Shown here: positions 41,896-56,691 of the stretch, piece after piece | Layout of the letters: each line of letters begins with the position of its first letter | Numbering within the stretch: position 1 is the stretch's first letter | Source of the DNA: Candidatus Accumulibacter necessarius | GTDB taxonomy: Bacteria > Pseudomonadota > Gammaproteobacteria > Burkholderiales > Rhodocyclaceae | Length of the DNA stretch: 64,000 nucleotides | Assembly (NCBI GenBank): GCA_017302435.1 | Contig: JAFLDL010000022.1 | Coordinates: 1-64,000 of the forward strand | Direction of reading: 5' to 3' | Program-made: the position numbers and the translations under genes | Notes under the pieces: generated by a model | Seen by the model: the letters and a program-made list of their open reading frames with translations, nothing else | Told to the model about the DNA's origin: nothing | Databases searched by the model: none

Positions 41896-42488
41896 TCCTC
41901 AGGAAGCTAGCAAAAATAAGTGGAACAGTTATTGCCGCGCGATGTCTCGATGCGGTCGGATTCGGTAGGTCCACTCGCCAAGGAGCTCGACGCGTTCGAT
42001 CGCGACACCAGCGCTAATTCGGGGCAATAAGTATTTCCGGGGCTTTTTGGCCGACCGTCCGCGGATTATTGCTCGCGGTCGAGGTGACCGGGAGGATCTC
42101 CACCTCACAGTCAGTTTCTTCTGCAAGCTTGGCGATCCACGAGCCGGGCCCTGTGAAACAAGGGACAGCCTCTCAATCGTCTCGCGAGTTCAAATCGCTA
42201 CAGCGTAATCCGGCGAGTCCGGGATGGGGTCAGCCCGTTCAGGAGGCCGTTCATCGGGCGGCACTTCGCTGTTGCCACATCGTCGTCGGCACTCGCACCG
42301 ACGTGCTCGCGACGGCGCCGAGGGGCCAATCGGAGCGCGTCGCTCGCTCATCTGCTGCGCTGGGACTGGAACGGTTGCCCGCGTGCCGCGTACTCCATGG
42401 CCGGGATATCGCGCCTGCACTTGCCGGTACAATGAGCGAAACGGCTTGGGGGCCAGCCGTGTGGTCCTGTTCCTGGGAGTCAACTGGC
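41896..42488. other. Repeat region between glycosyltransferase and epimerase genes
   Basis: Contains a degenerate composite element (42015-42209). The remaining stretch 42223-42480 shows no recognisable gene, although the epimerase frame stays open through it. Confidence 0.5.
42015..42209 (+). repeat. Composite A-B element, degenerate, lacking the B palindrome
   Basis: Starts TAATTCGGGGCAATAAGTAT (eroded family A) and continues with the shared core TTTTTGGCCGACCGTCCGCGG ... GAGGTGACCGGGAGGATCTC. It also has the long-form insert with GAAACAAGGGACAGCCTCTC. At the B position it reads CAAATCGC-TACAGCGTAAT where other copies have the REP palindrome in between: 17 bp are cleanly missing. Confidence 0.85.
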
Positions 42489-43514: not shown

Positions 43515-44843
43515 ATGAAAGTCACCGTTATTGGCACCGGCTATGTTGGCCTGGTCACCGGCGCATGCCTGTCGGAAATGGGCAACCACGTGCTCTGTCT
43601 GGATGTGGATGAGCGCAAGATCGAGATCCTCAACAGCGGCGGCATCCCGATCCATGAGCCGGGTCTGGAGCAGATGGTCAAGCGCAATGCCGCCGACGGC
43701 CGGCTGCAATTCACCACCGACGTCGTCGCCGCGGTGCATCACGGGACGCTGCAGTTCATCGGCGTCGGCACGCCGCCGGACGAGGACGGTTCGGCCGATC
43801 TCCAGTATGTGCTGGCCGCCGCGCGCAGCATCGGCCAGCACATGACCGATTACAAGGTGATCGTCGACAAGAGCACGGTGCCGGTCGGCACCGCCGACCG
43901 GGTGCGCGCGGCGGTGCAGGAGGTGCTGGCCGAACGCGGCGTCAGCGTGGACTTTGCCGTCGTCAGCAACCCGGAATTCCTCAAGGAAGGCGCCGCGGTC
44001 GACGACTTCATGCGCCCCGACCGCATCATCATCGGCGCCGACGACGAGCGCGCCCGGTTGCTGATGCGGGCGATCTACGCACCGTTCTCCCGCAACCGCG
44101 ACAAGCTGCTGCTGATGGATACGCGCAGCGCCGAACTCACCAAGTACGCGGCCAACGCCATGCTGGCGACGCGCATCAGCTTCATGAACGAACTGGCGCG
44201 GCTGGCCGAGCGCGTCGGCGCCGACATCGAGCTGGTGCGCCACGGCATCGGCAGCGATCCGCGCATCGGCACGCACTTTCTCTACGCCGGCACTGGCTAC
44301 GGCGGGTCGTGCTTTCCGAAGGATGTGAAGGCGCTGGTCCGCACCGGCCACGACCTGGGCGTCGACCTGCGGGTGCTGACGGCGGTCGAAGCGGCGAACG
44401 AAACCCAGAAGCGGGTGCTGGTCGACAAGGTCGTCGCCCGCTTTGGCGAGGATCTACAGGGACGCCGCTTCGCCCTCTGGGGCCTGGCCTTCAAGCCGGA
44501 CACCGACGACATGCGCGAAGCGCCGAGTCGGGTGATCGTGCACGAGTTGCTGCACCGCGGCGCGACGATCCAGGCCTACGACCCGGTGGCGATGGACGAA
44601 GCGCGGCGGGTGTTCGGCGACCTGCCAGGGCTGAGCTTCGCCAGCCACCAGGCGGACGCCCTGCGCGATGCCGATGCGCTGCTGATCGTCACCGAGTGGC
44701 GCGAGTTCAAGAGCCCGGACTTCGAGCAGATGCGGGCGCTGCTCAAAGAGCCGCTGATCTTCGACGGCCGCAACCTCTTCGACCCCGCCCTGGTCCGCAG
44801 CCTGGGGCTCGAGTATCACGCCATCGGGCGCGGGGAAGCTTAA
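43515..44843 (+). CDS. ugd: UDP-glucose 6-dehydrogenase (intact copy)
   Basis: A 442-residue two-step NAD-dependent dehydrogenase making UDP-glucuronate. [20 protein letters not shown] is the dinucleotide site, and the catalytic Cys266 is in [14 protein letters not shown]. The C-terminal UDP-binding domain has [20 protein letters not shown] and [12 protein letters not shown]. Spacing of 18 bp from the epimerase gene, with AAAGGA before the ATG, implies an operon. Its TAA stop is the first TAA of a composite repeat. It is the only complete ugd; fragments occur at 26094, 46465, 49980, 50674 and 54451. Confidence 0.96.
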
Positions 44844-44982
44844 TTTCGGGGACAGTATATGTATCTTGGCAGGCTTCTGGCCGACAGTGGGCGGATTGTT
44901 GTGGGCAGTTGAGGTGATCGGGAGGATCGTCACCTCACGGTCAGTTCAAATCGCCCGATGAATCGGGCTCCTACAGCGTAAT
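44841..44982 (+). repeat. Composite A-B element, short form
   Basis: TAATTTCGGGGACAGTATAT starts at the ugd stop codon. The common core (CTTCTGGCCGACAGT ... GATCGGGAGGATC) and a minus-oriented family-B REP (44951-44974) follow, ending ACAGCGTAAT. Confidence 0.92.
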
Positions 44983-45033
44983 GTGGGTAGAGGCTGCTTC
45001 AAGCCACCCCAGCGCGTTGTGCCGAGAATTCGA

Positions 45034-45123
45034 GAATTCGGGGACAGTATATTTATCTGGGGGTGCTTCTGGCCGAAAGTCGGCGGATTGTTGCTCGCGG
45101 TCGACGTGGCCGGGAGGATTTCC
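45034..45123 (+). repeat. Composite element, left part only
   Basis: GAATTCGGGGACAGTATATT then the core up to GTGGCCGGGAGGATTTCC. It is cut off where the next family-A end begins. Confidence 0.88.
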
Positions 45124-45126
45124 TAG

Positions 45127-45262: not shown

Positions 45263-45324
45263 TCACGCTCGCAATGACGGCAGGGTTCGTCATCGCGAGC
45301 CCCAATGGGGGCGTGGCGATCCAG
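45262..45324. repeat. Inverted CGTCATCGCGAG-type repeat
   Basis: CACGCTCGCAATGACGG and GTCATCGCGAGCC ... GGCGTGGCGATCCAGG form a loose inverted pair of the widespread CGTCATTGCGAGC / GCGATCCAG dispersed repeat type. Different from families A and B. Confidence 0.55.
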
Positions 45325-45390
45325 GGTGTCGGGGATCAAGGTCTGGGGGCGAGAGGCAATAATGAACGTGGGGTGGTACGTCCAATAACC

Positions 45391-45460
45391 CGTCGCACCG
45401 GCGAAGGCCGGTGCTCAGTTCGTTGACTTTTCTGGATTCCGGCCTTCTTCGGAATGACGG
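45391..45460. repeat. Palindromic CCGGCGAAGGCCGG-type repeat
   Basis: CACCGGCGAAGGCCGGTG is a hairpin. It is followed by CTGGATTCCGGCCTTCTTCGGAATGACGG, another hairpin. The pair resembles the common proteobacterial repeat of form GTCATTCCGGC...GGAATCCAG. Confidence 0.6.
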
Positions 45461-45547
45461 ACCCGGATTGTTGGATGTGCCCTTGCATGGTTGCTGTTGA
45501 TCATGTCTATGACTAACATGCAGTCATTGCTTGTATGAGGGGGGCGT

Positions 45548-45796
45548 ATGGCGACCATGACGATTCGCAACATCGATGACCAGCTCAAGGCAAGGTTGCG
45601 GGTACAAGCAGCCATGCACGGTCGCTCGATGGAGGACGAGGCGCGGAACATTCTGCGCACGGCGTTGTCCGCCGAGCCCGCCAGCGGGCAATCCCTGGTG
45701 GATGCAATTCGGGCCAGGATCGAGCCACTGGGTGAGGTCGATCTGGAACTGCCGGCGCGCGAGCCGATGCGCGCGGCCGTGGACTTGGGCGCATGA
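45548..45796 (+). CDS. FitA-like ribbon-helix-helix antitoxin
   Basis: An 82-residue protein. The N-terminal RHH domain is MTIRNIDDQLKARLRVQAAM followed by GRSMEDEARNILRTAL. The C-terminal tail (REPMRAAVDL) would insert into the toxin. It is the antitoxin and autorepressor of a VapBC/FitAB pair, overlapping the toxin by 4 bp. A run of G before the ATG (GAGGGGGGCGT) serves as ribosome site. Confidence 0.9.
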   Translation: MATMTIRNIDDQLKARLRVQAAMHGRSMEDEARNILRTALSAEPASGQSLVDAIRARIEPLGEVDLELPAREPMRAAVDLGA

Positions 45797-46212
45797 TCGT
45801 ATTGGATACCAATGTGGTGTCCGAATGCATGCGGCCGGCACCGCACGGGAGAGTGATCGGTTGGCTTGCTCTGCAGCCGCGTTCCGGGCTATTCACTACG
45901 ACCGTGGTGGAAGGTGAGATTCTCTATGGGGTCCGTGTGTTACCCGATGGTGCACGCCGGGATGCGCTGCTGCTGGCTGTGCGGGCCATCTTCGCCGAGG
46001 ATTTCGCCGGCCGGGTGCTCAGTTTTGACCGTGACGCGGCTGACGTCTACGCGGAGATTGCCGCAGTGAGGAAGAAGGCGGGAAAGCCCATCAGCCAGTT
46101 TGACGCGATGATTGCCGCTGTGGTCCGTTCTCGAGGGGCATGCCTGGCAACGCGCAACACCAGGGATTTCGTGGACTGCGGCATCGAATTGGTTGATCCG
46201 TGGTTGACCTGA
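45793..46212 (+). CDS. FitB-like PIN-domain toxin (VapC family)
   Basis: A 139-residue PIN RNase. Acidic residues are in MIVLDTNVVSECM (Asp5), VVEGEILYGVRVLP (Glu near 41), ISQFDAMIAAVVRSRGACLA (Asp near 104) and ATRNTRDF (Asp near 122), so the active site looks complete. It would cleave RNA, probably tRNA, when freed from FitA. The stop is followed at once by a GGTTGCA heptamer array and a composite repeat. Confidence 0.92.
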   Translation: MIVLDTNVVSECMRPAPHGRVIGWLALQPRSGLFTTTVVEGEILYGVRVLPDGARRDALLLAVRAIFAEDFAGRVLSFDRDAADVYAEIAAVRKKAGKPISQFDAMIAAVVRSRGACLATRNTRDFVDCGIELVDPWLT

Positions 46213-46235
46213 GGTTGCAGGTTGCAGGTTGCAGG
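46213..46235 (-). repeat. Heptamer array GGTTGCA (inverted TGCAACC)
   Basis: Three head-to-tail copies directly behind the FitB stop, ending at the TAATTCGGGG edge of a composite repeat. It is the inverse of the array at 28673, which also follows a toxin gene. Confidence 0.85.
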
Positions 46236-46450
46236 TAATTCGGGGACAGTACACATATCTCTAGGGGCTTTTGGCCGACGGTCGGCGGATCGTTGCTCGC
46301 GGTCGAGGTGACCGGGAGGATCTCCCTCTCACGGTCAGTTCTTTCTGCAAGCGTGCCGATCCACGCGCTGGGCCCTGTGAAACAAGGGACAGCCTCTCAA
46401 TCGTCCCGCGAGTTCAAATCGCCCGATGAATCGGGCTCCTACAGCGTAAT
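46236..46450 (+). repeat. Composite A-B element, long form
   Basis: TAATTCGGGGACAGTACACA, then the core, the extra segment (GCCGATCCACGCGCTGGGCCC ... AAACAAGGGACAGCCTCTC, interrupted here) and a minus-oriented family-B REP at 46419-46442, ending ACAGCGTAAT. Confidence 0.9.
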
Positions 46451-46464
46451 TTGGCGAGGCTAGG

Positions 46465-47097
46465 ATGGGGTCAGGCGACACTTCGCTGGTGCGCCGCGGC
46501 ATCGGCAGCGAACCGCGCATCGGCACGCACTTTCTCTACGCCGGTACCGGCTACGGCGGGTCGTGCTTTCCCAAGGATGTCAAGGCGCTGGTCCGCACCG
46601 GCCACGACATGGGCATCGACCTGCGCGTGCTGACTGCGGTCGAGGCGGCGAACGATAGCCAGAAGCGGGTGCTGGTCGACAAGGTCGTCGCGCGCTTCGG
46701 CGAGGATCTGCAGGGACGCCGCTTCGCCCTCTGGGGCTTGGCCTTCAAGCCGGACACCGACGACATGCGCGAAGCGCCGAGTCAGGTGATCGTGCACGAA
46801 CTGCTGCGCCGCGGCGCGGCGATCCGGGCGTACGACCCGGTGGCGATGGACGAAGCGCGGCGGGTGTTCGGCGACCTGCCGGGGCTGAGCTTCGCCAGCC
46901 ACCAGGCGGACGCGCTGCGCGATGCCGATGCACTGCTGATCGTCACCGAGTGGCGCGCGTTCAAGAGCCCGGACTTCGAGCAGATGCGGGCGCTGCTCAA
47001 GCAGCCGCTGATCTTCGACGGCCGCAACCTTTTCGACCCCGCCCTGGTCCGCGGCCTCGGGCTGGAGTATCACGCGATCGGGCGCGGGGAGGCGTAA
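46465..47097 (+). pseudogene. ugd 3' fragment, repeat-flanked copy 1
   Basis: A 210-codon frame opens MGSGDTS and joins ugd at [20 protein letters not shown]. It keeps the catalytic Cys motif GGSCFPKDV and the whole UDP-binding C-terminus. The N-terminal NAD domain is gone, so it cannot be a working dehydrogenase. It is nearly identical to the intact gene, so the duplication is recent. The join point is shared exactly with the fragment at 50674. Composite repeats lie immediately on both sides, and its TAA is part of the right one. Confidence 0.93.
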
Positions 47098-47430
47098 TTC
47101 GGGGACAGTATATTTATCTCTGGGTGCTTCTGGCCGCCAGTCGGCGGATTGTTGTGGGCAGTTGAGGTGATCGGGAGGATCGTCACCTCACGGTCAGTTC
47201 AAATCGCCCGATGAATCGGGCTCCTACAGCGTAATTGTGGGGCGTGCCCGCCAAGCGCTGCCCTGAGGTTGCTTCAATCCACCCCAGCCCGTCGTGTCAG
47301 CGGGGGGTATGACCAATTACCCCGCGGGTGGTTGTTGCGAAGGTGGCGCTGGAGGGGTGAGGGCGGCGGCGGGTGAGCTGTCCGAGCTTGCCATTGAGTA
47401 TACCGTCACCGAATTAGCGTCACCGAATTA
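47095..47430 (+). repeat. Composite A-B element, complete (both ends)
   Basis: A 336-bp copy. The left end TAATTCGGGGACAGTATATT is followed by the core and a family-B REP in minus orientation (47204-47227). The GCTTCAATCCACCCCAGCCC ... ACCCCGCGGGTGG block (interrupted here) comes next, and the right end GAGTATACCGTCACCGAATT is followed by a second CGTCACCGAATTA. The two ends are imperfect inverted repeats. Confidence 0.92.
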
Positions 47431-47531
47431 GCAATTCGCAAGGGTCACTGGTTACCCCATAGCCCAGTTGGCGTGATCCATTCGGGCCGCCGCGGACAGG
47501 AATGCGGTCGGCCCGTCGCAGCAGGGGGTGT

Positions 47532-48554
47532 TCAGGATCGCTCGACGAACACGGCGTCCAGGGTCTGTGCGTCGAGCACGTGCTTCGCCCACGCCTCCAG
47601 GCGCTCCGGTTCAGCGCCTGCGAGCTGGCTCTCAACCCAGGGCGGTAAGGCTCCGAAGCGCCAGGTCAACAACTGCTTCAGCAGCCGTGCTTCGCCTTGC
47701 TCGATTCCCTGCTCGATTCCCTTTTCAATTCCCCTTTCGATCCCTTTTTCGATCCCTTTTTCGATCCCTCTCTCCATCGCCTGTTGTTCCCATTGCTCGG
47801 CAATCGTCAGCATCAGTTCACCTCCACCACTCAAAGTTTCTGTCACTACCTGGCGCAACTCGTCACCGCTCAAGCGGTCGATGCTCGCCGCCTGCGCCAG
47901 GTACCGTAAAAGCGTACGGACATAGTCCAACCCGATTGAGCTCTGCGCGAGGTCCCGCAGCAGTCCCAGAATTTCCGGCAGCCGCTCGCTCAACTCGTTC
48001 CGGAAGATGTACTTCAGGGTCAGCAGCGCCGTATGCAGCATGACCGCACCCTGCAGCTCGTCGTCCCGGTATCCGCTCAAGTCGATCAGGTGATAGATAC
48101 AGGCCGGCACATAGGCGCGCAGGGCCGGAGCGTCTTCTACCTCATCGGCGAATTGCCGGCTGACGCGCCAGGTCGCCGTGCCGTGATAGACCACGACCGG
48201 TACGACAACGGGCAGGCGGCCGGAATTCCCGGCGTTCAGCCATTGTTCCCAGATCCGCACGCGGTAACGCAGGAGGTCCAGGCCGATTCGCGACTCGACG
48301 TAGCTCTTGTGTTCGAACAGCACGTGTACATAGCCGGTTCCGCCGCTGCAGAGATCAACGGTGTACAGCAGGTCCGCGGGATGCAGCGCAAGTTCCGGAT
48401 CGAGAAACGAATCCTTGGCCGTGCGCAAGGTCTTCCAGTCCAGTGCCTGTCCGGCTGCCGCCGGCAGATAACGTTCCAGGAACTCCGCCGCTACCTCGGT
48501 CCGCCCGAACACCGCCTTGAAAAAGCGGTCGTGAGGGCTATTCAACGCCGTCAT
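47532..48554 (-). CDS. Rpn family recombination-promoting nuclease / putative transposase
   Basis: A 340-residue PD-(D/E)XK protein of the RpnA / transposase_31 type. It shows SPHDRFFKAVFGRTEVAAEF, FLDPELALHPADLLYTVDL (Asp) and VLFEHKSYVESRIGLDLLRY, with the ExK catalytic motif intact. A coiled run of GIEK/GIEQ/GIER units (about 270-295) follows, encoded by 12-bp tandem repeats around 47700-47775. The DUF4351 tail ends KHVLDAQTLDAVFVE. E. coli RpnA is a DNA endonuclease that raises recA-independent recombination. It is a distant paralogue of the protein at 24268 with the same coiled-repeat design. Confidence 0.9.
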   Translation of the reverse strand: MTALNSPHDRFFKAVFGRTEVAAEFLERYLPAAAGQALDWKTLRTAKDSFLDPELALHPADLLYTVDLCSGGTGYVHVLFEHKSYVESRIGLDLLRYRVRIWEQWLNAGNSGRLPVVVPVVVYHGTATWRVSRQFADEVEDAPALRAYVPACIYHLIDLSGYRDDELQGAVMLHTALLTLKYIFRNELSERLPEILGLLRDLAQSSIGLDYVRTLLRYLAQAASIDRLSGDELRQVVTETLSGGGELMLTIAEQWEQQAMERGIEKGIEKGIERGIEKGIEQGIEQGEARLLKQLLTWRFGALPPWVESQLAGAEPERLEAWAKHVLDAQTLDAVFVERS

Positions 48555-48735
48555 GTGCGATCTCCGCCAACTCGCTGAAGCTTCATCCTATCACTGTCAG
48601 GACTGACGTCGCCACTCTGAACAAGAGAAAACTCGGGGCCGGTGCACTCAACTGACCACCAGCCCTCGCAACCTGGCCTACGCTTTGCGCCAGGGGGATA
48701 CGCTGTTATTCGCCACCGAATGAAGTGATTTCAAG

Positions 48736-48807
48736 GAATACCGTGACAGTATCCATAACTCTGGGAATACGGTGACAGTGGGAATACGGTGACAGTATCC
48801 ATAACTC
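48736..48807 (+). repeat. Three tandem family-A variants (GTGACAGTAT form)
   Basis: GAATACCGTGACAGTATCCA, then GGAATACGGTGACAGTG, then GGAATACGGTGACAGTATCC, each ending at or near ATAACTC. They have GTGACAG in place of GGGACAG, like the right ends of the composite elements. Confidence 0.8.
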
Positions 48808-49030
48808 GAAGTGGTGTGAAGCCCAGGCAGCGAGCGGTCGGCCGGCACCAAAGGCCAGATGCTTGATCTGCTCACCGACCCCCTGCAGCGGGCCGATGTA
48901 ATGGGAGTCGGTGATCAGATGGTCGAAGAGTCCCTCCAGCGGCGTGCGGCGAACCGCCCGCAGTTCAACCGGGCGTAGGGCGTCGAGACGGCTTTCCAGT
49001 GGCGTTCGGTCCACCCCCGCCGGCAAGCGG
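48807..49030 (-). pseudogene. DUF4338-like fragment
   Basis: On the minus strand: LESRLDALRPVELRAVRRTP, then LEGLFDHLITDSHYIGPLQG and VGEQIKHLAFGAGRPLAAWA. This resembles the DUF4338 domain found in transposon-associated proteins. It is cut at its 3' end by the family-A variant cluster and has no start. Assignment by eye only. Confidence 0.5.
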
Positions 49031-49149
49031 CCGGCGCCGAGCGATGGCGTTGTTCGGCGGGCGGTGGCGTACCGCGGGCAGGCGGATGTGTTCGGCCCGG
49101 TGGAGGACGAGCAGCAAACTGCAGCTGAGTTCGACGAAGGCTGGTGACT

Positions 49150-49262
49150 GCGGCGAGGTCCGCTCGCCTCCGGCCCGATCTCGATCTCCGATGTCAGCAC
49201 CTTGAAGCTGCGTCCGATGTCTGCGAGCGACCTGTAACTTGTGACCACCGCGTCGGGTGGCA
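49150..49262 (-). pseudogene. IS1634-like transposase fragment
   Basis: The minus-strand frame DAVVTSYRSLADIGRSFKVL then TSEIEIGP matches the C-terminal core of IS1634/IS4-type transposases (YKSLADIERGFRVLKSEIEI pattern). Only about 35 codons remain. Confidence 0.6.
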
Positions 49263-49346
49263 CTGGATTGCCACGTCGGCTGCGCCTCCTCGCCATGAGG
49301 GTGGGTATCGGTAATCGGAGCGGCGTGGCCCTGCCGGTGCTGTAGT

Positions 49347-49512
49347 CAGCCTTCGGCAACTTGGGTTGCCAGTTCGAGCAGTGAGACGGCCTGGATGTCG
49401 TGGGCCATTCGATAGCGTTCCTGGCCGGGATAGACGACGAACTTGCGCGCGGGGGCCAGGTCTTCACAGGCGGCATGAAAGCCGCGTTCGACTTTTGGAT
49501 TGAGGCTGAGGG
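49347..49512 (-). pseudogene. C-terminal fragment of AAA ATPase with DUF4143
   Basis: The minus-strand frame NPKVERGFHAACEDLAPARK then FVVYPGQERYRMAHDIQAVS, ending AEG-stop, matches the typical end of AAA/DUF4143 proteins. The upstream part is missing; the break lies at the family-A repeat at 49517. Confidence 0.7.
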
Positions 49513-49516
49513 AAAC

Positions 49517-49535
49517 GGGGACAGTATAGTTAACT
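49517..49535 (+). repeat. Family-A repeat (AGTTAACT form)
   Basis: GGGGACAGTATAGTTAACT: the same subtype as the copies flanking RAYT-A at 55922 and 56671. Confidence 0.9.
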
Positions 49536-49599
49536 GCCCCACCAGCCCTCGCAACTTCCCCGGCGTTGCGTTAGCCGGATACGCTGTTGATCGCCACTG

Positions 49600-49961
49600 A
49601 ATGCGTCTACAGCGGCATGCCCTTCGCCGAATGCGACAAGGTCGATCACCTGGTCAGCTGCGACCAGGAAGGTCAACGAGCTGATGGCGCACACCTACAG
49701 CCATCTCTGTCGCTTGCCGAACACTGGCCTGCGCTTCTTCACCGTAAACCGGTGCCCCTGATGGACTTCATCGGCTGTCTCGATGAGCGGGTTGGGCGCC
49801 AGGCTGCGAAGCGCATGCTGCCGATGGAGGCGGGCGACGTGGCGGCCACGTGCGCCGACACCGCCGCCCTTGAACCATGGATCGACTTCGCGCCGAGCAC
49901 ACCGCCGTCTGCGGGCATAGTGCGCTTGGTCGATTGGTCTCGCCACTACTACCAGGTCTGA
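49600..49961 (+). pseudogene. UDP-glucuronate epimerase remnant (second copy)
   Basis: Starts at the sequence for [19 protein letters not shown], shifts frame through [13 protein letters not shown], and jumps from TGLRFFT directly to [20 protein letters not shown]. It then reads on to DWSRHYYQV. Compared with the intact gene at 42489, the 5' half and about 240 bp in the middle are deleted. It lies 18 bp before a ugd fragment, repeating the intact gene order. Confidence 0.9.
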
Positions 49962-49979
49962 AAGGAAAGTTTTCCTCCG

Positions 49980-50518
49980 AGGAAAGTCACCGTTATTGTC
50001 ACCGGCCAGGTTGGTCTGGTCACCGGCGCTTGCCTGTCGGAAATGGGCAACCACGCGCTCTGTCTGGATGTGGACGAGCGCAAGAGCGAGATCCTCAACA
50101 ACGGCGGCATCCCGATCCATGAGCCCGGTCTGGAAGAGATGATCAAGCGCAATGCCGCCGATGGCCGGCTGCAATTCACCATCGACATTGCCGCCGCGGT
50201 GCATCACGGGACGCTGCAGTTCATCGGCGTCGGCACGCCGCCCGACGAGGACGGTTCGGCCGATCTCCAGTACGTGCTGGCCGCGGCGCGCAGCATCGGC
50301 CAGCACATGACCGACTACAAGGTGATCGTCGACAAGAGCACGGTGCCGGTCGGCACCGCCGACCGGGTGCGCGCCGCGGTGCAGGCGGTGCTGGCGGAAC
50401 GTGGCGTCAGCGTGGACTTCGCCGTCGTCAGCAACCCGGAGTTTCTCAAGGAAGGCGCCGCGGTCGACGACTTCATGCGCCCCGACCGCATCATCATCGG
50501 GGCGGACGACGAGGCATG
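49980..50518 (+). pseudogene. ugd 5' fragment (second copy), start codon lost
   Basis: The frame [20 protein letters not shown] corresponds to [20 protein letters not shown] of the intact gene: ATG became AGG and the dinucleotide motif GTGYVG became VTGQVG. Homology runs to [13 protein letters not shown], where a composite repeat begins; about 185 bp of ugd are replaced. The 3' part resumes at 50674. Confidence 0.93.
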
Positions 50519-50659
50519 TAATTCGGGGACAGTATATTTATCTCGGGGTGCTTCTGGCCGACAGTCGGCGGATTGTTGCTCGCGGTCGACGTGGCCGGGA
50601 GGATTTCCACCTCACGGTCAGTTCAAATCGCCCGATGAATCGGGCTCCTACAGCGTAAT
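50519..50659 (+). repeat. Composite A-B element, short form, inside ugd
   Basis: TAATTCGGGGACAGTATATT, core and a minus-oriented family-B REP (50629-50652). It splits the second ugd copy. Confidence 0.92.
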
Positions 50660-50673
50660 TTGGCGAGGCTAGG

Positions 50674-51269
50674 ATGAGGTCAGGCGACACTTCGCTGGTG
50701 CGCCACGGCATCGGCAGCGACCCGCGCATCGGCACGCACTTTCTCGACGCCGGCACCGGCTACGGCGGATCGTGCTTTCCCAAGGATGTCAAGGCGCTGG
50801 TCCGCACCGGCCACGATATGGGCGTTGATCTGCGGGTGCTGACTGCGGTCGAAACGGCGAACGATAGCCAGAAGCGGGTGCTGGTCGACAAGGTCGTCGC
50901 CCGTTTTGGGGAGAATCTGCAGGGGCGCAGCTTTGCCCTCTGGGGCCTGGCCTTCAAGCCGGACACCGACGACATGCGCGAAGCGCCGAGTCGGGTGATC
51001 GTACACGAACTGCTGCGCCGCGGCGCGGCGATCCGGGCGTACGACCCGGTGGCGATGGACGAAGCGCGGCGGGTGTTCGGCGACCTGCCGGGGCTGAGCT
51101 TCGCCAGCCACCAGGCGGACGCGCTGCGCGATGCCGATGCGCTGCTGATCGTCACCGAGTGGCGCGCGTTCAAGAGCCCGGACTTCGAGCAGATGCGGGC
51201 GCTGCTCAAAGAGCCGCTGATCTTCGACGGCCGCAACCTCTTCGACCCCGCCCTGGTCCGCGGCCTGCG
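50674..51269 (+). pseudogene. ugd 3' fragment, repeat-flanked copy 2
   Basis: Opens MRSGDTS and enters ugd at [17 protein letters not shown], the same junction as in the fragment at 46465. It keeps the catalytic Cys motif but stops matching at [11 protein letters not shown], where the next repeat begins; the final residues of ugd are lost. The frame then reads through the repeat. Near-identical to the intact gene. Confidence 0.92.
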
Positions 51270-51516
51270 TAATTCGGGGACGCGTAATTCGGGGACAGTA
51301 TATGTATCTCTGGGTGCTTCTGGCCGACAGTCGGCGGATTGTGGCTCGCGGTCGACGTGGCCGGGAGGATTTCCACCTCACGGTCAGTTCAAATCGCCCG
51401 ATTAATCGGGCTCCTACAGCGTGATATGGGGCGTGAATCGGGGACAGTATATGTAACTCGAAGGGCTGGGCGGTTCGGGCTTGCGGGCTTGCAATTGAGT
51501 ATACTGTCACCGAATT
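51270..51516 (+). repeat. Composite A-B element with doubled left end
   Basis: TAATTCGGGGACGCG precedes TAATTCGGGGACAGTATATG, so the left terminus is duplicated. The core and a variant family-B REP (51394-51417, ATTAATCG loop) follow. A second family-A copy lies at 51440, and the right end GAGTATACTGTCACCGAATT closes at 51516. Confidence 0.9.
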
Positions 51517-51551
51517 CCGTCCACCGTATTCGCTACCGCGGGCGGGAAAAA

Positions 51552-51571
51552 GGCGACAGTATACTTAATTT
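51552..51571 (+). repeat. Family-A variant
   Basis: AGGCGACAGTATACTTAATT: a diverged core (GCGACAG) 33 bp before the ISAs1 insertion. Confidence 0.65.
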
Positions 51572-51673
51572 CATCTTCGCCGAGCGCCAGGCATCCTCTC
51601 GCGCAGGGCAATCGCATGAATGCCATCGTCGTGAACCCTCCGAAATAATCGTTTACGCTCAACGAGTTACAAA

Positions 51674-51691
51674 GGGGCTGTTCACAGCCCC
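51674..51691 (+). promoter_or_regulatory. Hairpin in ISAs1 leader
   Basis: GGGGCTGTTCACAGCCCC is a perfect 8-bp stem 37 bp before the transposase ATG. It may dampen read-through transcription or translation into the transposase. Confidence 0.5.
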
Positions 51692-51728
51692 CTGATTTGT
51701 GTAGTTTTCTGTCTTTTTGGGGTTTTCC

Positions 51729-52859
51729 ATGAGGGCAGAAAGCAAGTTCCGGTTGGTTGACGTCTGGGTGGGCGTGCGCGATCCGAGGCAGAGTACGAAG
51801 GTCGAGCACGACCTGATCGAGTTGCTGGTGGTTGCAGTCAGTGCGGTCCTGTCAGGGGCCGACACCTTTGTCGAAATCGAGGCTTGGGCGAAAGAGAAGC
51901 TGGAGTGGTTGCGGGAGTATCTGAAACTCGAACAGGGCATCCCCTCGCACGACACCTTTGGCCGGGTCTTTGCGGCGATTGATCCCGACGAATTCGGGGC
52001 GGCCTTCGTGCGCTGGGTGGGCCAGGTGTTGCCCGTGCTGGCAAACGGCGACGTGGTGGCCATCGACGGCAAGACCAGTCGTCGGTCGGGAAAGGTGGGC
52101 GCCACCCCCCTTCACCTGGTCAGCGCCTTTGCGGCCCAAGCGGGTGTGGTGCTGGGGCAGCGCGCGACCGCCGAGAAGTCGAACGAGAAGACCGCCATCC
52201 CGGAACTGCTGGCGACCTTGGCACTGCAAGGCAGCATCGTCACCATCGATGCGATGGGCACGCAGCCGAACATTGCGCAGGCCATTCGGGACCGCGGCGC
52301 GGACTACCTCCTGGCCGTCAAGGACAATCAGCCCAGGCTGGCCGAATCGATCGACGACTTCTTCATCGCCTTCGAGGCGGCACCAGCCAAGACGCCCCAC
52401 CAGTTCCACGAAGTCGTCGAGAAGGATCATGGCCGGATCGAAGTGCGTCGCTGCTACGTCTTCAACCAGCTGGACTGTCTGCACGCCCCTGAGCGCTGGC
52501 CAGACCTGAAATCGTTTGTGGTGATCACCACCGAACGGACGATCAGAGGAAAAGCGACTTCGACTGAACGGCGCGTGTATCTCAGTAGCTTGCCACCTGA
52601 CGCTCAGCGCATGAATCAGAGCGTCCGCCAGCACTGGCGTGTCGAGAACAGTCTGCACTGGTGCATGGACGTGGTCTTTGGCGACGACCAGATGCGGGCC
52701 CGTATCGATCATGCCGCTCACAACCTCGCCGTCGTGCGCCAATTCGTCTTGAATCTCATCCGCCTCTCCCAGGTCAAGCGCAAGGGCGGCCTCAAGGTTC
52801 AGCGCCTCATCGCCGCCACCTCCGATACCTTCCGCGCGGAACTGCTCGGTCTTGTATAA
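51729..52859 (+). CDS. ISAs1-family transposase
   Basis: A 376-residue DDE transposase. The N-terminal DUF4338-free start RLVDVWVGVRDPRQSTKVEH and the H-repeat-associated DGKTSRRS are present. Catalytic Asp occurs in VAIDGKTS and IDAMGTQPNIAQAI, the Glu-bearing helix is RQHWRVENSLHWCMDVVFGD, and NLIRLSQVKRKGG is near the end. It is full length. A second IS inserted 2 bp after its TAA stop, so the protein is unaffected and the element may still transpose. Confidence 0.95.
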   Translation: MRAESKFRLVDVWVGVRDPRQSTKVEHDLIELLVVAVSAVLSGADTFVEIEAWAKEKLEWLREYLKLEQGIPSHDTFGRVFAAIDPDEFGAAFVRWVGQVLPVLANGDVVAIDGKTSRRSGKVGATPLHLVSAFAAQAGVVLGQRATAEKSNEKTAIPELLATLALQGSIVTIDAMGTQPNIAQAIRDRGADYLLAVKDNQPRLAESIDDFFIAFEAAPAKTPHQFHEVVEKDHGRIEVRRCYVFNQLDCLHAPERWPDLKSFVVITTERTIRGKATSTERRVYLSSLPPDAQRMNQSVRQHWRVENSLHWCMDVVFGDDQMRARIDHAAHNLAVVRQFVLNLIRLSQVKRKGGLKVQRLIAATSDTFRAELLGLV

Positions 52860-52861
52860 GA

Positions 52862-54355
52862 GAGCCTCTTGCAAAACTCGCTATCCAGCCGAATTTTTCC
52901 GTGCAAGGGGTTGGCAATGGGGGTGGCTGGCGGCCACTTCTGGCATGATTGGAGAGTGGAAACCCTGATCACGCCTGCCATGACGAACGATAGCATAGCT
53001 TGCCGGACGATGGATCGCTGGAATGTGGTGCAGCACGAACTGATCCCGGAACTTGAGGCGCGCTGGGGCGCGATGACGCCGAAGCTGGAACGGGTGATCC
53101 ACATTCTCGAGTGGGTGCGGATCGAGGAGTTCACGGCGGTGTCGTGGTGTGGTGTCGGCCGTCCGCCGTTTGAGCGGGCGTGGCTGGCGAACGCCTTTGT
53201 CGCCAAAGCGGTACTGGGGATGACGACGACCGTGGGGCTGATTGAGCGCCTGATGATCGACCGTGCGCTGCGCCGCATCTGTGGTTTCCCGCTACACAAG
53301 GCGCTGCCTTCCGAGGCCACCTTCTCGCGCGCCTTCGACGAGTTTGCCGGAGGGAGCCTGGGCCAACGAGTCCATGAATCCCTGATCAAGGAACATCTGG
53401 GAGATCAACTGATCGGGCATCTCAACCGCGACGGGACGGCCATCGAGGCCCGCGAACGCCCCGCGCGCAACGGCAAAGCCGCAGAGAAAGGAGCCGCCAC
53501 GACCCAGCCCACGCTGTTGGCGACCGAAGAGAGCCCTGCCGCGCCGACAAGCACGCTGGCACCGCCGGCGCTGGCGAGAAAGCGGGGCCGCCCGCGGCGG
53601 GGCGAAGCGCGTCCGGCGGCGAAGGCCTCCCCGATCGAGCGCCAGCGCGGGCAAACCTTGGCGCAAATGCTCCACGAGATTCCCACCGCGTGTGATCGCG
53701 GCACGAAGTGTAATGCGCAGGGCTACAAGAACAGTTGGACCGGCTACAAGCTGCATCTCGACACCGCCGACTGTGGTGTCCCCATCTCAGCGCTCCTTTC
53801 CAGTGCTTCGATGCATGACAGCCTCGCCGCCATTCCCCTGTCGTTGATCAGCGCCGAGCGCGTCACCAACCTCTATGACCTCATGGATGCGGCCTATTGC
53901 AGCACCGAGTTGCGCGCGCACAGCAAGAGCCTCGGGCACGTTCCCCTGATCGACCACAACCCGCGACGCGGTGAGAAGATCGAATTCTCCCCGGCCGAAG
54001 CGATCCGCTACAACGAGCGGAGCGCCGCCGAGCGGAGCAACGCCCGCCTCAAGGATGAGTTCGGTGGCCGGAACATCAGGGTCAAGGGCCACACCAAGGT
54101 GATGGCCCACCTGATGTTCGGCCTCCTCGCGCTGTCCGCTGACCAATTGATGCGATTACGACGATGACCCCCAGCCTTCGCTCTCTGAACGCGGTGCATT
54201 CGAGGAGTGCAGGAGGGGGTTCGCACCGGATTCCGAAAACGATGCCCTCAGGTTAGCCGCTCAGCCGGACAGGCTTCGCTCGCAACAAAAATCGCTCCCG
54301 GAGAGCGAATGCTGCGGCGCAGCAACTCGCACCGGGGGAGTTTTGCAAGAGGCTC
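52862..54355 (+). mobile_element. Insertion sequence nested in ISAs1
   Basis: A 1494-bp element with perfect 18-bp inverted ends GAGCCTCTTGCAAAACTC and GAGTTTTGCAAGAGGCTC. It is flanked by the direct duplication AAGA (52858-52861 and 54356-54359). The perfect ends and the intact gene show a recent arrival. Confidence 0.95.
52980..54167 (+). CDS. DDE transposase of the nested IS (IS1182/IS5-like)
   Basis: A 395-residue transposase. The DUF772-like N-terminus has RPPFERAWLANAFVAKAVLG and RALRRICGFPLHKALPSEAT. The catalytic Asp is in GHLNRDGTAIEARERP, a long basic and Ala/Pro-rich insert covers about 165-220, and the C-terminal LMDAAYCSTELRAHSKSLGH and RSAAERSNARLKDEFGGRNI carry the second Asp and the Glu. 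The Y-x2-R-x3-E-like end fits the IS4/IS5/IS1182 superfamily. An ATG at 52980 is chosen; the frame is open further upstream. Confidence 0.88.
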   Translation: MTNDSIACRTMDRWNVVQHELIPELEARWGAMTPKLERVIHILEWVRIEEFTAVSWCGVGRPPFERAWLANAFVAKAVLGMTTTVGLIERLMIDRALRRICGFPLHKALPSEATFSRAFDEFAGGSLGQRVHESLIKEHLGDQLIGHLNRDGTAIEARERPARNGKAAEKGAATTQPTLLATEESPAAPTSTLAPPALARKRGRPRRGEARPAAKASPIERQRGQTLAQMLHEIPTACDRGTKCNAQGYKNSWTGYKLHLDTADCGVPISALLSSASMHDSLAAIPLSLISAERVTNLYDLMDAAYCSTELRAHSKSLGHVPLIDHNPRRGEKIEFSPAEAIRYNERSAAERSNARLKDEFGGRNIRVKGHTKVMAHLMFGLLALSADQLMRLRR

Positions 54356-54450
54356 AAGATTCATGCAATTGCCCTGTCCTCTCGCGAGCTATCGTGGCGG
54401 CGTTTTCCTGTAACCGCGAGAAACCATTGCTCGCGGCTACGCGCACCGCC

Positions 54451-54534
54451 GAAGTCGAGCCGGTGATCCTGGATGATCGCGACCGCTTTGACCCGGTGCT
54501 GGTGCGCGAGCCGGGTGTGGAGTACCCCACGGGA
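54451..54534 (+). pseudogene. Degenerate ugd 3'-terminal fragment
   Basis: The frame EVEPVILDDRDRFDPVLVRE then PGVEYPTGG matches [25 protein letters not shown] of ugd at about half the positions. It lies next to the ISAs1 insertion and 70 bp before family-A ends. It is older and more eroded than the 46-51 kb fragments. Confidence 0.6.
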
Positions 54535-54607
54535 GGGTGTGGGGCGTGGTTTCCGGGGGGGCGCAGCAGCGGCTGGGCGGTCGAAGTGGGCCATCGCTAT
54601 TGGTATT

Positions 54608-54646
54608 GAATATACTGTCACCGTATTAGGGCGTCACCGTAATAGG
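54608..54646 (-). repeat. Family-A right-end variant, doubled
   Basis: GAATATACTGTCACCGTATT followed by GGGCGTCACCGTAATAGG: the same doubled-terminus pattern as at 47396 and 55859. Confidence 0.8.
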
Positions 54647-54733
54647 GCTGATGGTCCGCCATCGTTCCAAGGTGGCCTCGGCAACGCTCCAGCGCTTGGC
54701 CAGTTCTTTCTGGGTCATCAACTTCTCTTGCAT
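54626..54733 (-). pseudogene. AlpA/excisionase-like HTH fragment
   Basis: The minus-strand frame MQEKLMTQKELAKRWSVAEA then TLERWRTISPITVTP-stop is the start of a small MerR/AlpA-type DNA-binding protein. The family-A right end truncates it after 35 codons and supplies the stop. Confidence 0.7.
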
Positions 54734-54865
54734 GTCAGCGTCTCTTCAGGAGTGTCGTCATGTCCCGGATTTACGCGCTGCAAGCCCAAGAAGCCAAGCG
54801 ACATGATGCTGGTGGTTCGCAACGTGGTCTTTACGGCTGCCAGCGATTGACTCAAGCCGTCAGGG

Positions 54866-54882
54866 TTGGCATAATATGCCAA
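54866..54882 (+). promoter_or_regulatory. Palindromic operator upstream of parDE
   Basis: TTGGCATAATATGCCAA is a perfect 17-bp inverted repeat 22 bp before the parD ATG, overlapping a TATAAT-like stretch. A likely ParD autoregulation site. Confidence 0.7.
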
Positions 54883-54904
54883 TAGACATGAGATGGAGGT
54901 TGGC

Positions 54905-55186
54905 ATGCCTACGCGCAATGTTGTGCTCACCGAGCACCAAGCCTCGCTGGTCGAGCAGTTGGTCACCAGCGGTCGTTACCAAAACGCCAGTGAAGTTCTG
55001 CGTGAGGGTCTTCGTCTCGTTGAGCAACGCGAGGCCGAAGATGCTTGCCGTCTTGAGGCCCTTCGGTCTGCTGTGCAAATGGGGATTGCAGACATTGAGG
55101 CTGGCCGATTCAAGACCTTTGAAGCCAAAGAATCGCTGCGGGGCCAACTCAAATTCATCACCGACAAAGCGATCGCTGCTGCATGA
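54905..55186 (+). CDS. parD: ParD/CC2985-type antitoxin
   Basis: A 93-residue protein. The RHH DNA-binding part is NVVLTEHQASLVEQLVTSGR followed by YQNASEVLREGLRLVEQREA, and the C-terminal tail runs IADIEAGRFKTFEAKESLRG. It neutralises ParE and represses its own operon through the upstream palindrome. The ATG at 54905 follows GGAGG at the right spacing, preferred over the in-frame ATG four codons earlier. It overlaps parE by 4 bp. Confidence 0.9.
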   Translation: MPTRNVVLTEHQASLVEQLVTSGRYQNASEVLREGLRLVEQREAEDACRLEALRSAVQMGIADIEAGRFKTFEAKESLRGQLKFITDKAIAAA

Positions 55187-55524
55187 GCTTTGTCTGGCAG
55201 ATTCGGTTGGCAGAGCGAGCCGAACTGGATTTTCTCGACATCGCCGCATGGACTGCTGAGAACTTCGGCGCTCGCCAGGCAGAGTACTACGCCGAGACTG
55301 TGACGCTGGCGATTGAGGCCTTGCATGATGGGCCAGAAATTCTGGGGGCCCAAGCGCGGGACGATATTGGATCAGGCATCCGCACCTTGCATGTGGCTCG
55401 GCAAGGCAGAAAAGGTCGCCATTTTGTGGTTTTCAAGGAAGCGGAAGGTCGAAGCATCGATGTCCTCCGATTGCTTCATGACAGCATGGACTTGGCCAGG
55501 CATGTTCCTGTGGCCGGTCGGTAA
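55183..55524 (+). CDS. parE: ParE-type toxin (RelE/ParE superfamily)
   Basis: A 113-residue toxin. WQIRLAERAELDFLDIAAWT and the closing beta hairpin (IRTLHVARQGRKGRHFVVFK followed by SIDVLRLLHDSMDL) are typical of ParE, which poisons DNA gyrase. The last codon before the stop is CGG and the TAA is the first TAA of a composite repeat, so the repeat inserted at or created the 3' end. The last residues (ARHVPVAGR) look normal for the family. Confidence 0.9.
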   Translation: MSFVWQIRLAERAELDFLDIAAWTAENFGARQAEYYAETVTLAIEALHDGPEILGAQARDDIGSGIRTLHVARQGRKGRHFVVFKEAEGRSIDVLRLLHDSMDLARHVPVAGR

Positions 55525-55896
55525 TTCGGGGACAGTATATTTATATCTGGGTTCTTTTGGCCGACAGTCGGTGGATTTTTGCTCACGGTCCAGGTGACAG
55601 GGAGGAGCCGCGCCTGACGATCAATTCGGTTGGCAAGCTTGCCGATCCACGAGCCGGACCCCGTGAAACGAGGGACAGCAAGGCAATCGTCCCGCGAGTT
55701 CAAATCGCCCAATGAATCGGGCTCCTACAGCGTATGCTTCAAGCCACCCCAGCCCATTGTGCGAGCGGGCGGTGTGATCGACTACCCCGCGGGTTGTTGT
55801 TGCGGAGGTGCGGCTGGAGGGGTAGAGGGCGGCTGCTGGGCTGTCCGAGCTTTCTATTGAGTATACTGTCACCCAATTAAGGTCACCAAATTAAGG
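55522..55896 (+). repeat. Composite A-B element, longest complete copy
   Basis: 375 bp. TAATTCGGGGACAGTATATT, the core, the long-form insert (GCCGATCCACGAGCCGGACC ... AAACGAGGGACAGCAAGGC, interrupted here) and a family-B REP (55704-55727, one mismatch). The block GCTTCAAGCCACCCCAGCCC ... CTACCCCGCGGG (interrupted here) and the right end GAGTATACTGTCACCCAATT, followed by GGTCACCAAATTAAGG, complete the copy. Confidence 0.92.
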
Positions 55897-55921: not shown

Positions 55922-55942
55922 AGGGGACAGTATAGTTAACTC
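55922..55942 (+). repeat. Family-A repeat, left flank of RAYT-A
   Basis: GGGGACAGTATAGTTAACTC plus one C. Perfect inverted match (21/21) to the copy at 56671. Confidence 0.95.
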
Positions 55943-55975
55943 CACGGGATCACACAGACGGCCAGGAGGACGACG

Positions 55976-56647
55976 GTGGCGAGAATTGCGAGGGTGGTGG
56001 CATCGGGCTGTCCGCATCACGTGACACAGCGGGGTAACCGGTGCCAGCAGACTTTTTTCTCCGAGGACGATTATCGCGAGTACTTGCGCCTGATGTCAGC
56101 TTCGTGCGCGCGTACCGGGACGGAGGTCTGGGCTTACTGCCTGATGCCGAACCATGTCCACCTGATCATGGTGCCGCAGCATTCCGATGGGCTGCGAAGT
56201 GCGGTCAGTGAGGCGCACCGGCGCTTTACGCTTCGGATCAACGTCCGCGAAGGATGGCGGGGCCACCTTTGGCAGGAGCGCTTCCACTCATTCCTGCTGG
56301 ATGAAACGCATTTGCTGGCTGCCGTTCGGTATGTCGAGAACAACCCGGTTCGTGCCGGGCTGTGCGCGCACGCCGAAGACTGGCCGTGGTCCAGTGCCCG
56401 CGCACACTTGCGGGGTGAGGACGACGGGCTGGCAAGGGTTGCGCCGATGCTGGCTATGGTTGCGAACTGGCCAGAGTACCTGAGCGAAGCGACGGATCAG
56501 TCTCTGGCCGAAAAAATCCATGCTCACACCCGGACCGGGCGGCCGTTGGGCGAAGAGGCCTTCGTCGGAGAACTGGAAGCGCGGCTCGAGCGCAGGCTGC
56601 GGCCGCAGAAACGCGGTCCAAAGCCGAGATCGGAGACCGGCGAGTAG
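55976..56647 (+). CDS. HUH/Y1 REP-associated-like transposase (RAYT-A)
   Basis: A 223-residue IS200/RAYT-like Y1 transposase. RIARVVASGCPHHVTQRGNR is the family start, the HUH motif is MPNHVHLIMVPQ near residue 57 and the catalytic Tyr is in VRYVENNPVRAG near 119. A basic C-terminal tail (LRPQKRGPKPRSETGE) is added. Perfect inverted family-A copies lie 33 bp upstream and 23 bp downstream, defining a 770-bp unit. It is likely the enzyme that moves family-A repeats and the composite elements. A GTG start is used; the frame is intact. It is much longer than RAYT-B and of a different subgroup. Confidence 0.92.
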   Translation: MARIARVVASGCPHHVTQRGNRCQQTFFSEDDYREYLRLMSASCARTGTEVWAYCLMPNHVHLIMVPQHSDGLRSAVSEAHRRFTLRINVREGWRGHLWQERFHSFLLDETHLLAAVRYVENNPVRAGLCAHAEDWPWSSARAHLRGEDDGLARVAPMLAMVANWPEYLSEATDQSLAEKIHAHTRTGRPLGEEAFVGELEARLERRLRPQKRGPKPRSETGE

Positions 56648-56670
56648 CGCGTTCTGATCGGTGCTGCGGT

Positions 56671-56691
56671 GGAGTTAACTATACTGTCCCC
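56671..56691 (-). repeat. Family-A repeat, right flank of RAYT-A
   Basis: GGAGTTAACTATACTGTCCC plus C: the inverted mate of 55922. It also encodes the last codons and the TAG stop of the minus-strand amidase gene. Confidence 0.95.

What the first reader, a model, noticed from the sequence alone, without database searches (positions are those of the whole stretch)
47095..55896. MITE-like composite element with family-A ends and an internal family-B REP
Copies at 47095-47430, 51270-51516 and 55522-55896 run from TAATTCGGGGACAGTATA to TATAC(T/C)GTCACC(G/C)AATTA, that is, with imperfect terminal inverted repeats. The interior is shared and has long and short forms. Others (42015, 44841, 46236, 50519) keep only the left part up to the B REP. 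It carries no gene, so it behaves like a non-autonomous mobile unit, plausibly moved by RAYT-A. I know of no description matching this exact structure.
Basis: partly seen in the sequence, partly recalled or inferred. Interest (0 to 1): 0.75.

Follow-up and report, generated by a model that had tools for sequence, protein, structure and literature searches.

The report
Gene-less hitchhiking DNA with transposon ends
A DNA unit of about 320-410 bases without genes, found in a few Accumulibacter sewage bacteria, carries the same ends as a nearby small transposon and seems to have been spread by it, with a palindromic repeat and a stretch matching the tail of a sugar-metabolism gene inside.

Summary
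The A "REP" is not a REP. It is the terminal inverted repeat of a 769-bp element (55923-56691, perfect 23-bp TIR) encoding the Y1 transposase RAYT-A: a TIRtron/TIRYT in published terms (TIR motif GGGGWSAS; here GGGGACAG). An internally deleted copy lies elsewhere in this genome, its homology starting and ending at the A termini.

The unit is a gene-less element with the same ends. In the ten copies tested it starts abruptly at TAATTCGGGG against nine to ten left flanks. Six of 28 Accumulibacter genomes hold it, four with both ends; a 121-genome family sample shows at most a 43-bp piece outside the genus. Exact A motifs number 7-39 in six genomes with RAYT-A and 0-4 in the other 22.

The unit is layered: its right arm matches sequence directly downstream of ugd in relatives, and the GTAG-type REP is present in 9 copies, cleanly missing in 3. 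Some window copies reflect duplication or recombination at ugd.

Unexpected: 29 of 153 A ends carry an outer tandem duplication of flank+GGKGAC (inner side 0 of 153; random positions 1%), perhaps marking a cleavage site.

Verdict: new variant of a known kind. Mobilisation by RAYT-A is inferred, not shown.

The parts
47095..47416 (+). Full short-form unit (322 bp) at the 3' end of a partial ugd copy: A-left, B REP, right arm, A-right
47417..47430 (+). Partial second copy of the A-right outer end (GCGTCACCGAATTA)
55522..55879 (+). Full long-form unit (358 bp) directly after parE; carries the ugd-tail-like right arm away from ugd
55880..55893 (+). Partial second copy of the A-right outer end (AGGTCACCAAATTA)
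51285..51517 (+). Rearranged unit (233 bp): A-left to B REP, then a second A motif (51440), then A-right end
51270..51284 (+). Partial copy of the A-left end (TAATTCGGGGACGCG) outside the unit
44841..45018 (+). Left part of a unit at the stop codon of the intact ugd, cut by the next A-left copy
45035..45119 (+). Left part of a further unit, cut by another A motif at 45132
46236..46475 (+). Left part (long form, with B REP) joined to a 3' fragment of ugd
50519..50684 (+). Left part (short form, with B REP) inside a ugd copy, in place of about 180 bp of ugd
42015..42226 (+). Left part (long form) WITHOUT the B REP hairpin, upstream of the epimerase gene
47201..47228 (+). Internal B REP (CTAC-tagged, i.e. 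GTAG on the other strand) in unit 47095
55923..56691 (+). RAYT-A (TIRYT) element, 769 bp: perfect 23-bp TIR GGGGACAGTATAGTTAACTCCAC at both ends
55976..56647 (+). RAYT-A / TIRYT gene, 223 aa, PF01797; HVH and Y---NP motifs read from the sequence
43515..44843 (+). Intact ugd (UDP-glucose 6-dehydrogenase), left neighbour of unit 44841
51500..51511 (-). A-right motif of unit 51285; G001 has the same right flank beside a ugd copy without A-left

Best explanation
The unit is a non-autonomous, MITE-like element whose ends are the terminal repeats of the RAYT-A (TIRYT) element. Shown by comparison: (i) the RAYT-A gene sits in a compact element bounded by inverted A ends, which has an internally deleted copy elsewhere in this genome; (ii) the unit has the same end motif and begins at the same base against unrelated flanks; (iii) A motifs are abundant only in the genomes that hold RAYT-A; (iv) the interior is layered: an A-left segment, an optional GTAG-type REP, and a right arm that matches sequence directly downstream of ugd in relatives, closed by an A-right end. 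Inferred: RAYT-A, a single-strand Y1 (HUH) nuclease, acts in trans on A ends, perhaps cutting near GGKGAC^AGTATA; a segment with an A-left end entered beside ugd, where an A-right end lay some 80 bp downstream, and the resulting A-to-A composite, ugd tail included, reached new sites. One-ended or failed events and homologous recombination between repeats produced the left-anchored truncated copies and the ugd/epimerase duplications around them.
For: Left boundary, 10 of 15 copies: mean pairwise identity 0.25 at -24 to -3, 0.38 at -2, 0.80 at -1, 1.0 over the first ten bases (left out: 44841 and G020, which share the ugd-stop flank, and 45035, G006C21a and G006C21b, whose ends differ). RAYT-A element: perfect 23-bp TIR; deleted copy at G000:C40:14734-15140, arms 94% and 87% identical, homology starting at the first G of GGGGAC and ending 6 bp past CCCC. 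RAYT-A hits of at least 78% identity in 6 of 28 genomes; 5 of the 6 have A motifs on both sides, G015 only downstream. Exact motifs in those six: 35, 39, 32, 24, 18, 7; in the other 22: 4, 3, 1, 1, 1 and 17 zeros (1/C(28,6) = 2.7e-6, ignoring phylogeny). Neighbouring motifs within 500 bp: 16 inward, 2 outward, 9 tandem. With/without: parE has the unit here and not in G009 or G003; of 10 ugd 3' ends, 3 have A-left, 6 the tail without A-left, 1 unclear; G001 10782 (no A-left) shares ugd on the left and 23 exact bases on the right with 51285. Unit right arms match the best ugd tail at 76-85%, E 2e-18 to 2e-12.
Against: No base-exact empty site with both flanks intact was found for a full unit; where both flanks are known (50519, 51285) target DNA is missing too. 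No consistent target duplication. Three full copies (47095, G007, G009) have rpn on the right, so their left flanks may have changed by recombination or adjacent deletion. Polarity of the ugd tail (captured, or left by deletion) is not settled. Beyond the GGKGACAGTATA core the unit's ends differ from those of RAYT-A. G007, G006 and G001 hold units or parts of them but no RAYT-A hit. Abundance versus RAYT-A is confounded by phylogeny. No excision or transposition data.
Confidence: 0.6

Rival explanations
1. Passive spread: the unit is old intergenic sequence of the ugd locus, multiplied by duplication, homologous recombination and gene conversion among ugd, epimerase, rpn and A repeats, without transposase action at its ends.
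For: 44841, 47095 and G020 share the ugd-stop junction; 46236 and 50519 share a right junction in ugd; unit, ugd, epimerase and rpn pieces recur together in several relatives; 9 of 15 aligned copies lack their own A-right end.
Against: It does not readily explain ten left junctions at the same base, left flanks at parE, S1, S3, vapC and the glycosyltransferase gene that are unrelated to each other, or A motifs on many contigs chiefly where RAYT-A exists.
Confidence: 0.28
2. A motifs are single REP-like insertions; inward pairs arise from two separate insertions beside native DNA, and the unit never moves as a whole.
For: Interiors of 13 inward pairs are mostly unrelated; the ugd tail exists beside ugd without A-left; many A motifs stand alone.
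Against: A-left, right arm and A-right recur together beyond unrelated left flanks in the window, G009 and G007; RAYT-A with both ends recurs at two sites in one genome; inward orientation predominates 16 to 2.
Confidence: 0.22
3. The unit is a transcribed 3'-UTR, terminator or attenuator of ugd kept for function, with other copies being decayed relatives.
For: Units lie at the stop codons of ugd and parE; the B REP folds as a hairpin.
Against: Probes for A-left and tail found neither downstream (up to 1.5 kb) of 20 of 24 ugd copies in the genus; units also lie inside ugd and epimerase copies.
Confidence: 0.05

Closest known systems
TIRtron / TIRYT (Di Nocera et al. 2013, PMC3733652; mostly subclass 2.1 of Quentin et al. 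2018, PMC6006769)
   Same: Y1 (HUH) transposase gene flanked by TIRs with GGGGWSAS; A. phosphatis is named as having two TIRYTs; TIRs can form modest repeat families with single, dimeric or grouped copies.
   Different: That paper reports no TIR repeats in A. phosphatis and, in the passages read, no composite unit, no REP inside a TIR element, no host gene tail, no deleted TIRtron copy and no outer end duplications. Subclass membership of this protein is untested.
REPIN / BIME (Bertels and Rainey 2011, PMC3116915, passages read)
   Same: Small non-autonomous element with inverted ends, thought to be moved in trans by a Y1 transposase.
   Different: Ends here are TIRs without GTAG tag or significant hairpin, the unit is about three times longer or more, and a single GTAG-type REP lies inside.
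Classical MITEs (as defined in passages of PMC3733652 and PMC3116915)
   Same: 318-412 bp, no gene, inverted ends matching an autonomous element in the same genome.
   Different: No target duplication found; the interior comes from other repeats and ugd-like sequence, not from RAYT-A; the transposase is Y1.
TIMEs / mosaic Tn3-derived elements (PMC4133298; search listing only)
   Same: Inverted-repeat mini-elements said to generate mosaic non-autonomous transposons.
   Different: Tn3 transposase; compared from title and start of abstract only.

Membership tests
TIRtron/TIRYT (applies to RAYT-A element 55923-56691) | RAYT-like Y1 transposase | tested here: met
   PF01797 E 1.6e-10; NF047646 77.8 bits, just under its cut-off of 80; HVH and Y---NP read from the sequence
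TIRtron/TIRYT (applies to RAYT-A element 55923-56691) | Gene flanked by TIRs rather than REPs, with GGGGWSAS | tested here: met
   Perfect 23-bp TIR starting GGGGACAG; end folds not significant
TIRYT subclass 2.1 | C-terminal HTH-like domain and subclass phylogeny | tested here: inconclusive
   Pfam found only Y1_Tnp at E 0.001; no protein tree built
MITE of the RAYT-A element | Inverted ends shared with an autonomous element in the genome | tested here: met
   GGKGACAGTATA core at both ends; sequence inside the core differs from RAYT-A
MITE of the RAYT-A element | Short, no coding capacity (70-300 bp in PMC3733652; about 100-400 bp in PMC3116915) | tested here: met
   No gene recognised in the unit; five full copies of 318-412 bp and one rearranged of 233 bp, above the narrower range
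MITE of the RAYT-A element | Target-site duplication (general MITE feature, recalled) | tested here: not met
   No consistent duplication by eye at six right and ten left junctions; not expected of Y1 elements (recalled)
MITE of the RAYT-A element | Mobilised in trans by that transposase | not testable with these tools
   Only correlation
REPIN | Two inverted GTAG-tagged REPs as ends | tested here: not met
   Ends are GGKGACAGTATA; a single REP lies inside
GTAG REP (applies to the internal B repeat) | GTAG tag plus palindrome, and a RAYT gene flanked by copies | tested here: met
   CTAC tag, fold z -2.1; RAYT-B 18626-19072 with B REPs at 18583, 19078, 19160, 19232

The most novel reading that the evidence does not exclude
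TIRYTs are active general-purpose movers: any two A ends facing each other can travel with whatever lies between them (their own gene, a foreign REP, a host gene's tail). The enzyme cuts A ends at GGKGAC^AG, and aborted cycles leave tandem duplications of flank+GGKGAC as a record of activity, visible in several phyla.
Probability: 0.3. Interest if true: 0.75.

Novelty: new variant of a known kind. Interest (0 to 1): 0.55.

Why it matters
REPtrons are reported not to appear to transpose as a unit (PMC6006769, passages read), and I saw no assay of a TIRYT in the passages read. Here a TIRtron has an end-to-end, internally deleted copy in the same genome and a set of non-autonomous followers, one of which holds a REP of a second RAYT system and ugd-like sequence. 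The outer end duplications give a testable guess at a cleavage site. If right, a widespread and little-studied class of Y1 enzymes moves host DNA between sites, which matters for genome plasticity in Accumulibacter, where ugd and an epimerase gene are repeatedly broken and duplicated at this locus.

Tried and rejected
- A as a REP: rejected; four end folds gave z -0.15 to 0.91 against -2.1 for B.
- All window copies as independent transpositions: rejected; ugd-linked copies share junctions.
- Fixed target tetranucleotide or target duplication: not found; only G at -1 in 9 of 10 copies.
- Empty site for 46236 via its vapBC flank: the flank matched only this genome among 28. Empty site for the deleted RAYT-A copy on C40: in other genomes only its RAYT-A part matched, not its flanks.
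- Site of an A element in G009 (C61): 25 of 28 genomes match the flanking genes, some by one half only. Of 16 loci given to, 14 yielded both flanks: G003, G020, G013 and G006 hold other inserts with A-like ends (in G013 and G006 decayed, judged by eye), ten have spacers of 58-139 bp. The two without a result were G004 (one half only) and G000 (halves about 1.6 kb apart). Spacers are too diverged to define the target.
- Unit outside the genus: 121 genomes drawn from the family; matches only in G000, G001 and a 43-bp piece in G119.
- G003 parE end: my string look-up failed; absence of the unit there rests on its match to 656 of 662 bases and its collinearity with G009 past parE.
- Papers: exact motif strings in PMC text gave 10 papers, none on this subject by title; Accumulibacter+RAYT gave 0; TIRYT gave 2; listings showed none describing this unit. 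Most subscription journals are not held, so absence is not proof.
- A tree of the shared left part (13 of 15 copies, about 100 bp) groups the ugd-stop copies (0.99) and little else with confidence; the three copies without the B REP do not group together on it, at weak support (0.64-0.79), so gain or loss of the REP stays open.
Full report
WHERE IT IS. The window is contig 15, bases 1-64000, of a 4.56-Mb genome in 88 contigs. This is inferred from the match, not a label given for the G handles.

THE OBSERVATION. GGKGACAGTATA occurs 26 times in the window with at most one mismatch, 20 times exactly, and 35 times exactly in the genome; read backwards it occurs 0 times there. Aligning 15 copies (8 from the window, 7 from G020, G009, G007, G006 and G001) shows one element: A-left and a shared segment of about 100 bp, an optional ~70-bp segment (long form), an optional B REP, a right arm, A-right. 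Both-ended copies: 47095 (322 bp), 55522 (358), 51285 (233, rearranged), G020 (321), G009 (318), G007 (412). The other 9 of 15 lack their own A-right end. Long form: 42015, 46236, 55522, G007, G006C100. The B REP hairpin is present in 9 copies, cleanly absent in 3 (42015, G007, G006C100: A(A/G)ATCG|CTACAGCG) and not assessable in 3 truncated ones.

DISTRIBUTION. In the genus 16 of 28 genomes match the unit at E 0.001, but many of the matches are only the 22-30 bp of the B REP. More than 40 bp of unit sequence is seen in G000, G020, G009, G007, G006 and G001, plus a decayed 59-bp left end in G013; G003 has a 37-bp right end. Among 121 genomes drawn from the family, only G000, G001 and a 43-bp piece in G119 match.

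BOUNDARIES. Ten of the 15 copies were compared (five left out, see evidence field). Mean pairwise identity is 0.25 at -24 to -3 and 1.0 over the first ten bases; the base at -1 is G in 9 of 10. Two of the ten (G007, G006C100) lie in the same region about 75 bp apart. Six right ends agree to GTCACC, keep a loose (G/C)(A/T)ATN, then diverge. By eye no consistent target duplication.

THE AUTONOMOUS PARTNER. RAYT-A (223 aa) is a Y1 transposase (PF01797, E 1.6e-10; NF047646 77.8 bits, cut-off 80) in a 769-bp element with a perfect 23-bp TIR starting GGGGACAG. Six genomes have a hit of at least 78% identity; five show A motifs on both sides, G015 only downstream. In this genome an internally deleted copy lies at C40:14734-15140: arms 94% and 87% identical, starting exactly at GGGGAC and ending 6 bp beyond CCCC. 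This is the clearest sign that an A-to-A segment was moved or copied as a unit. Its flanks had no match in other genomes.

A TRACKS RAYT-A. The six RAYT-A genomes hold 35, 39, 32, 24, 18 and 7 exact motifs; the other 22 hold 4, 3, 1, 1, 1 and seventeen zeros. G024 and G027 have distant Y1 relatives (49%, 37%) and count as without. Complete separation has probability 2.7e-6 if genomes were independent, which they are not. G007, G006 and G001 hold units or parts of them without a RAYT-A hit; in G007 and G006 several ends are altered, as expected if the partner was lost, but this is interpretation.

A ENDS AS TIRS. Of neighbouring exact motifs within 500 bp, 16 pairs face inward, 2 outward, 9 are tandem (positions copied from the cut list). 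Of 22 inward pairs within 1 kb, four are RAYT-A elements, three are units, and 13 others of 40-691 bp were read: their interiors are mostly unrelated (mutual matches at most 51 bp, mostly ends), and one is the deleted RAYT-A. Two were not read further.

THE UNIT IS LAYERED. Of ten ugd 3' ends, three carry A-left directly (44841, 47095, G020), six carry the tail without A-left (G006C11; G001 twice, the one at 8726 partial; G007 twice; G006C21), one is unclear. The tail is the same sequence as the unit's right arm (76-85% to the best tail; alignment). In three of the six it is closed by an A-right-like motif, about 80 bp from the junction in two and 24 bp in the partial one. Units at parE (55522), G009 and G007 carry this arm away from an adjoining ugd. 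Either the tail was captured from ugd, or tail-only copies are deletion products. The recurring (C)CTCGGG at tail-only junctions, and G006C11 (a tail-only ugd 95% identical in protein to the window's), mildly favour capture. Of 24 ugd loci probed downstream (up to 1.5 kb), A-left abuts 2, the tail probe hits 3 (two of them the same), G001 has A-left 870 bp on, and 20 have neither; the probe missed the partial tail of G001.

FILLED AND EMPTY. parE: unit here, none in G009 and G003 (97% and 96%); left-flank homology stops 6 bp before the unit. S1, the left flank of the G009 unit, carries a unit in G009, a unit-like fragment in G006, another A motif in G007 and the RAYT-A element in G003; in G020 it diverges. 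50519: A-left replaces about 180 bp of ugd, both sides matching intact ugd. 51285 and G001 10782 share ugd on the left and 23 exact bases on the right. G009:C61: an A element between two conserved genes, with other A-like inserts in four genomes and spacers of 58-139 bp in ten. These support insertion; none is base-exact on both sides.

AGAINST. 44841/47095 and 46236/50519 share junctions. 47095, G007 and G009 have rpn, a recombination-promoting-nuclease-like gene, on the right, so new left flanks may have come by adjacent deletion or recombination. Truncated copies are the majority (9 of 15).

AN UNEXPECTED REGULARITY. After removing near-duplicates, 153 A motifs with at most one mismatch (122 from Accumulibacter loci) were examined. 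In 29 the outer 6 bases plus GGKGAC recur (at most 2 of 12 mismatched) on the outer side within 30 bp; the mirror test on the inner side gives 0 of 153, random positions 203 of 20,000. In 23 of 29 the copy stops 0-2 bases after GGKGAC; in 3 the whole motif is repeated. As the varying outer bases are duplicated too, these look like duplications at each site rather than extra insertions. Four of the 29 are in Desulfocapsa and Rhodospirillales records. I read it, tentatively, as a repair scar of cleavage near GGKGAC^AG; replication slippage is the plain alternative.

KNOWN KIND. Di Nocera et al. 2013 (PMC3733652, passages read) named TIRtrons and TIRYTs, gave the motif GGGGWSAS, described modest TIR families, and said A. 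phosphatis has two TIRYTs but no TIR repeats. Quentin et al. 2018 (PMC6006769, passages read) place 20 of 26 TIRYTs in subclass 2.1, without REP-like structures. REPINs (PMC3116915, passages read) differ in their ends. I found no description of this unit in the searches.

JUDGEMENT. Best: TIRYT-associated non-autonomous element with a composite interior (0.6). Main rival: passive recombination at the ugd locus (0.28). The explanations overlap, since both processes appear to have acted, so the odds need not sum to one. Transposase action on the unit is inference.

Noticed in passing
window 47399, 48788, 54611, 55862 and 51270-51302; also L073, L100, L103, L146, L182, L208: Tandem partial duplications of flank+GGKGAC on the outer side of A ends: 29 of 153 distinct ends against 0 of 153 on the inner side.
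   Followed up: partly
window 42476-51270 and loci L104-L109: Epimerase and ugd genes are repeatedly duplicated and broken here and in several related genomes, next to rpn-like (PF04754) genes.
   Followed up: partly
window 18583-19257: Separate REPtron: a 148-aa RAYT (RAYT-B, 18626-19072) surrounded by four B REPs.
   Followed up: partly
window 26360, 27597, 31265 (- strand): A motifs sharing a different inner sequence (tgaaatacctt...), perhaps another A-ended family.
   Followed up: no
G009 contig C165, 303-7934: Seven exact A motifs in one orientation, about 0.9-1.7 kb apart: possibly a tandem array.
   Followed up: no
L090-L093, L096, L099-L103: The A motif followed by TNTATCTC occurs in Clostridiales, Elusimicrobia, Calditrichaeota, Salinisphaera, Desulfocapsa and Rhodospirillales records, with no match to this RAYT-A in the stretches held.
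   Followed up: no
window about 42198, L106, L109: The B REP hairpin is absent from three unit copies while the CTAC tag remains: a possible filled/empty site of a GTAG REP.
   Followed up: partly
window 47680-47800: In-frame short repeats in the rpn-like gene (GIEKGIEKGIERGIEKGIEQ).
   Followed up: no
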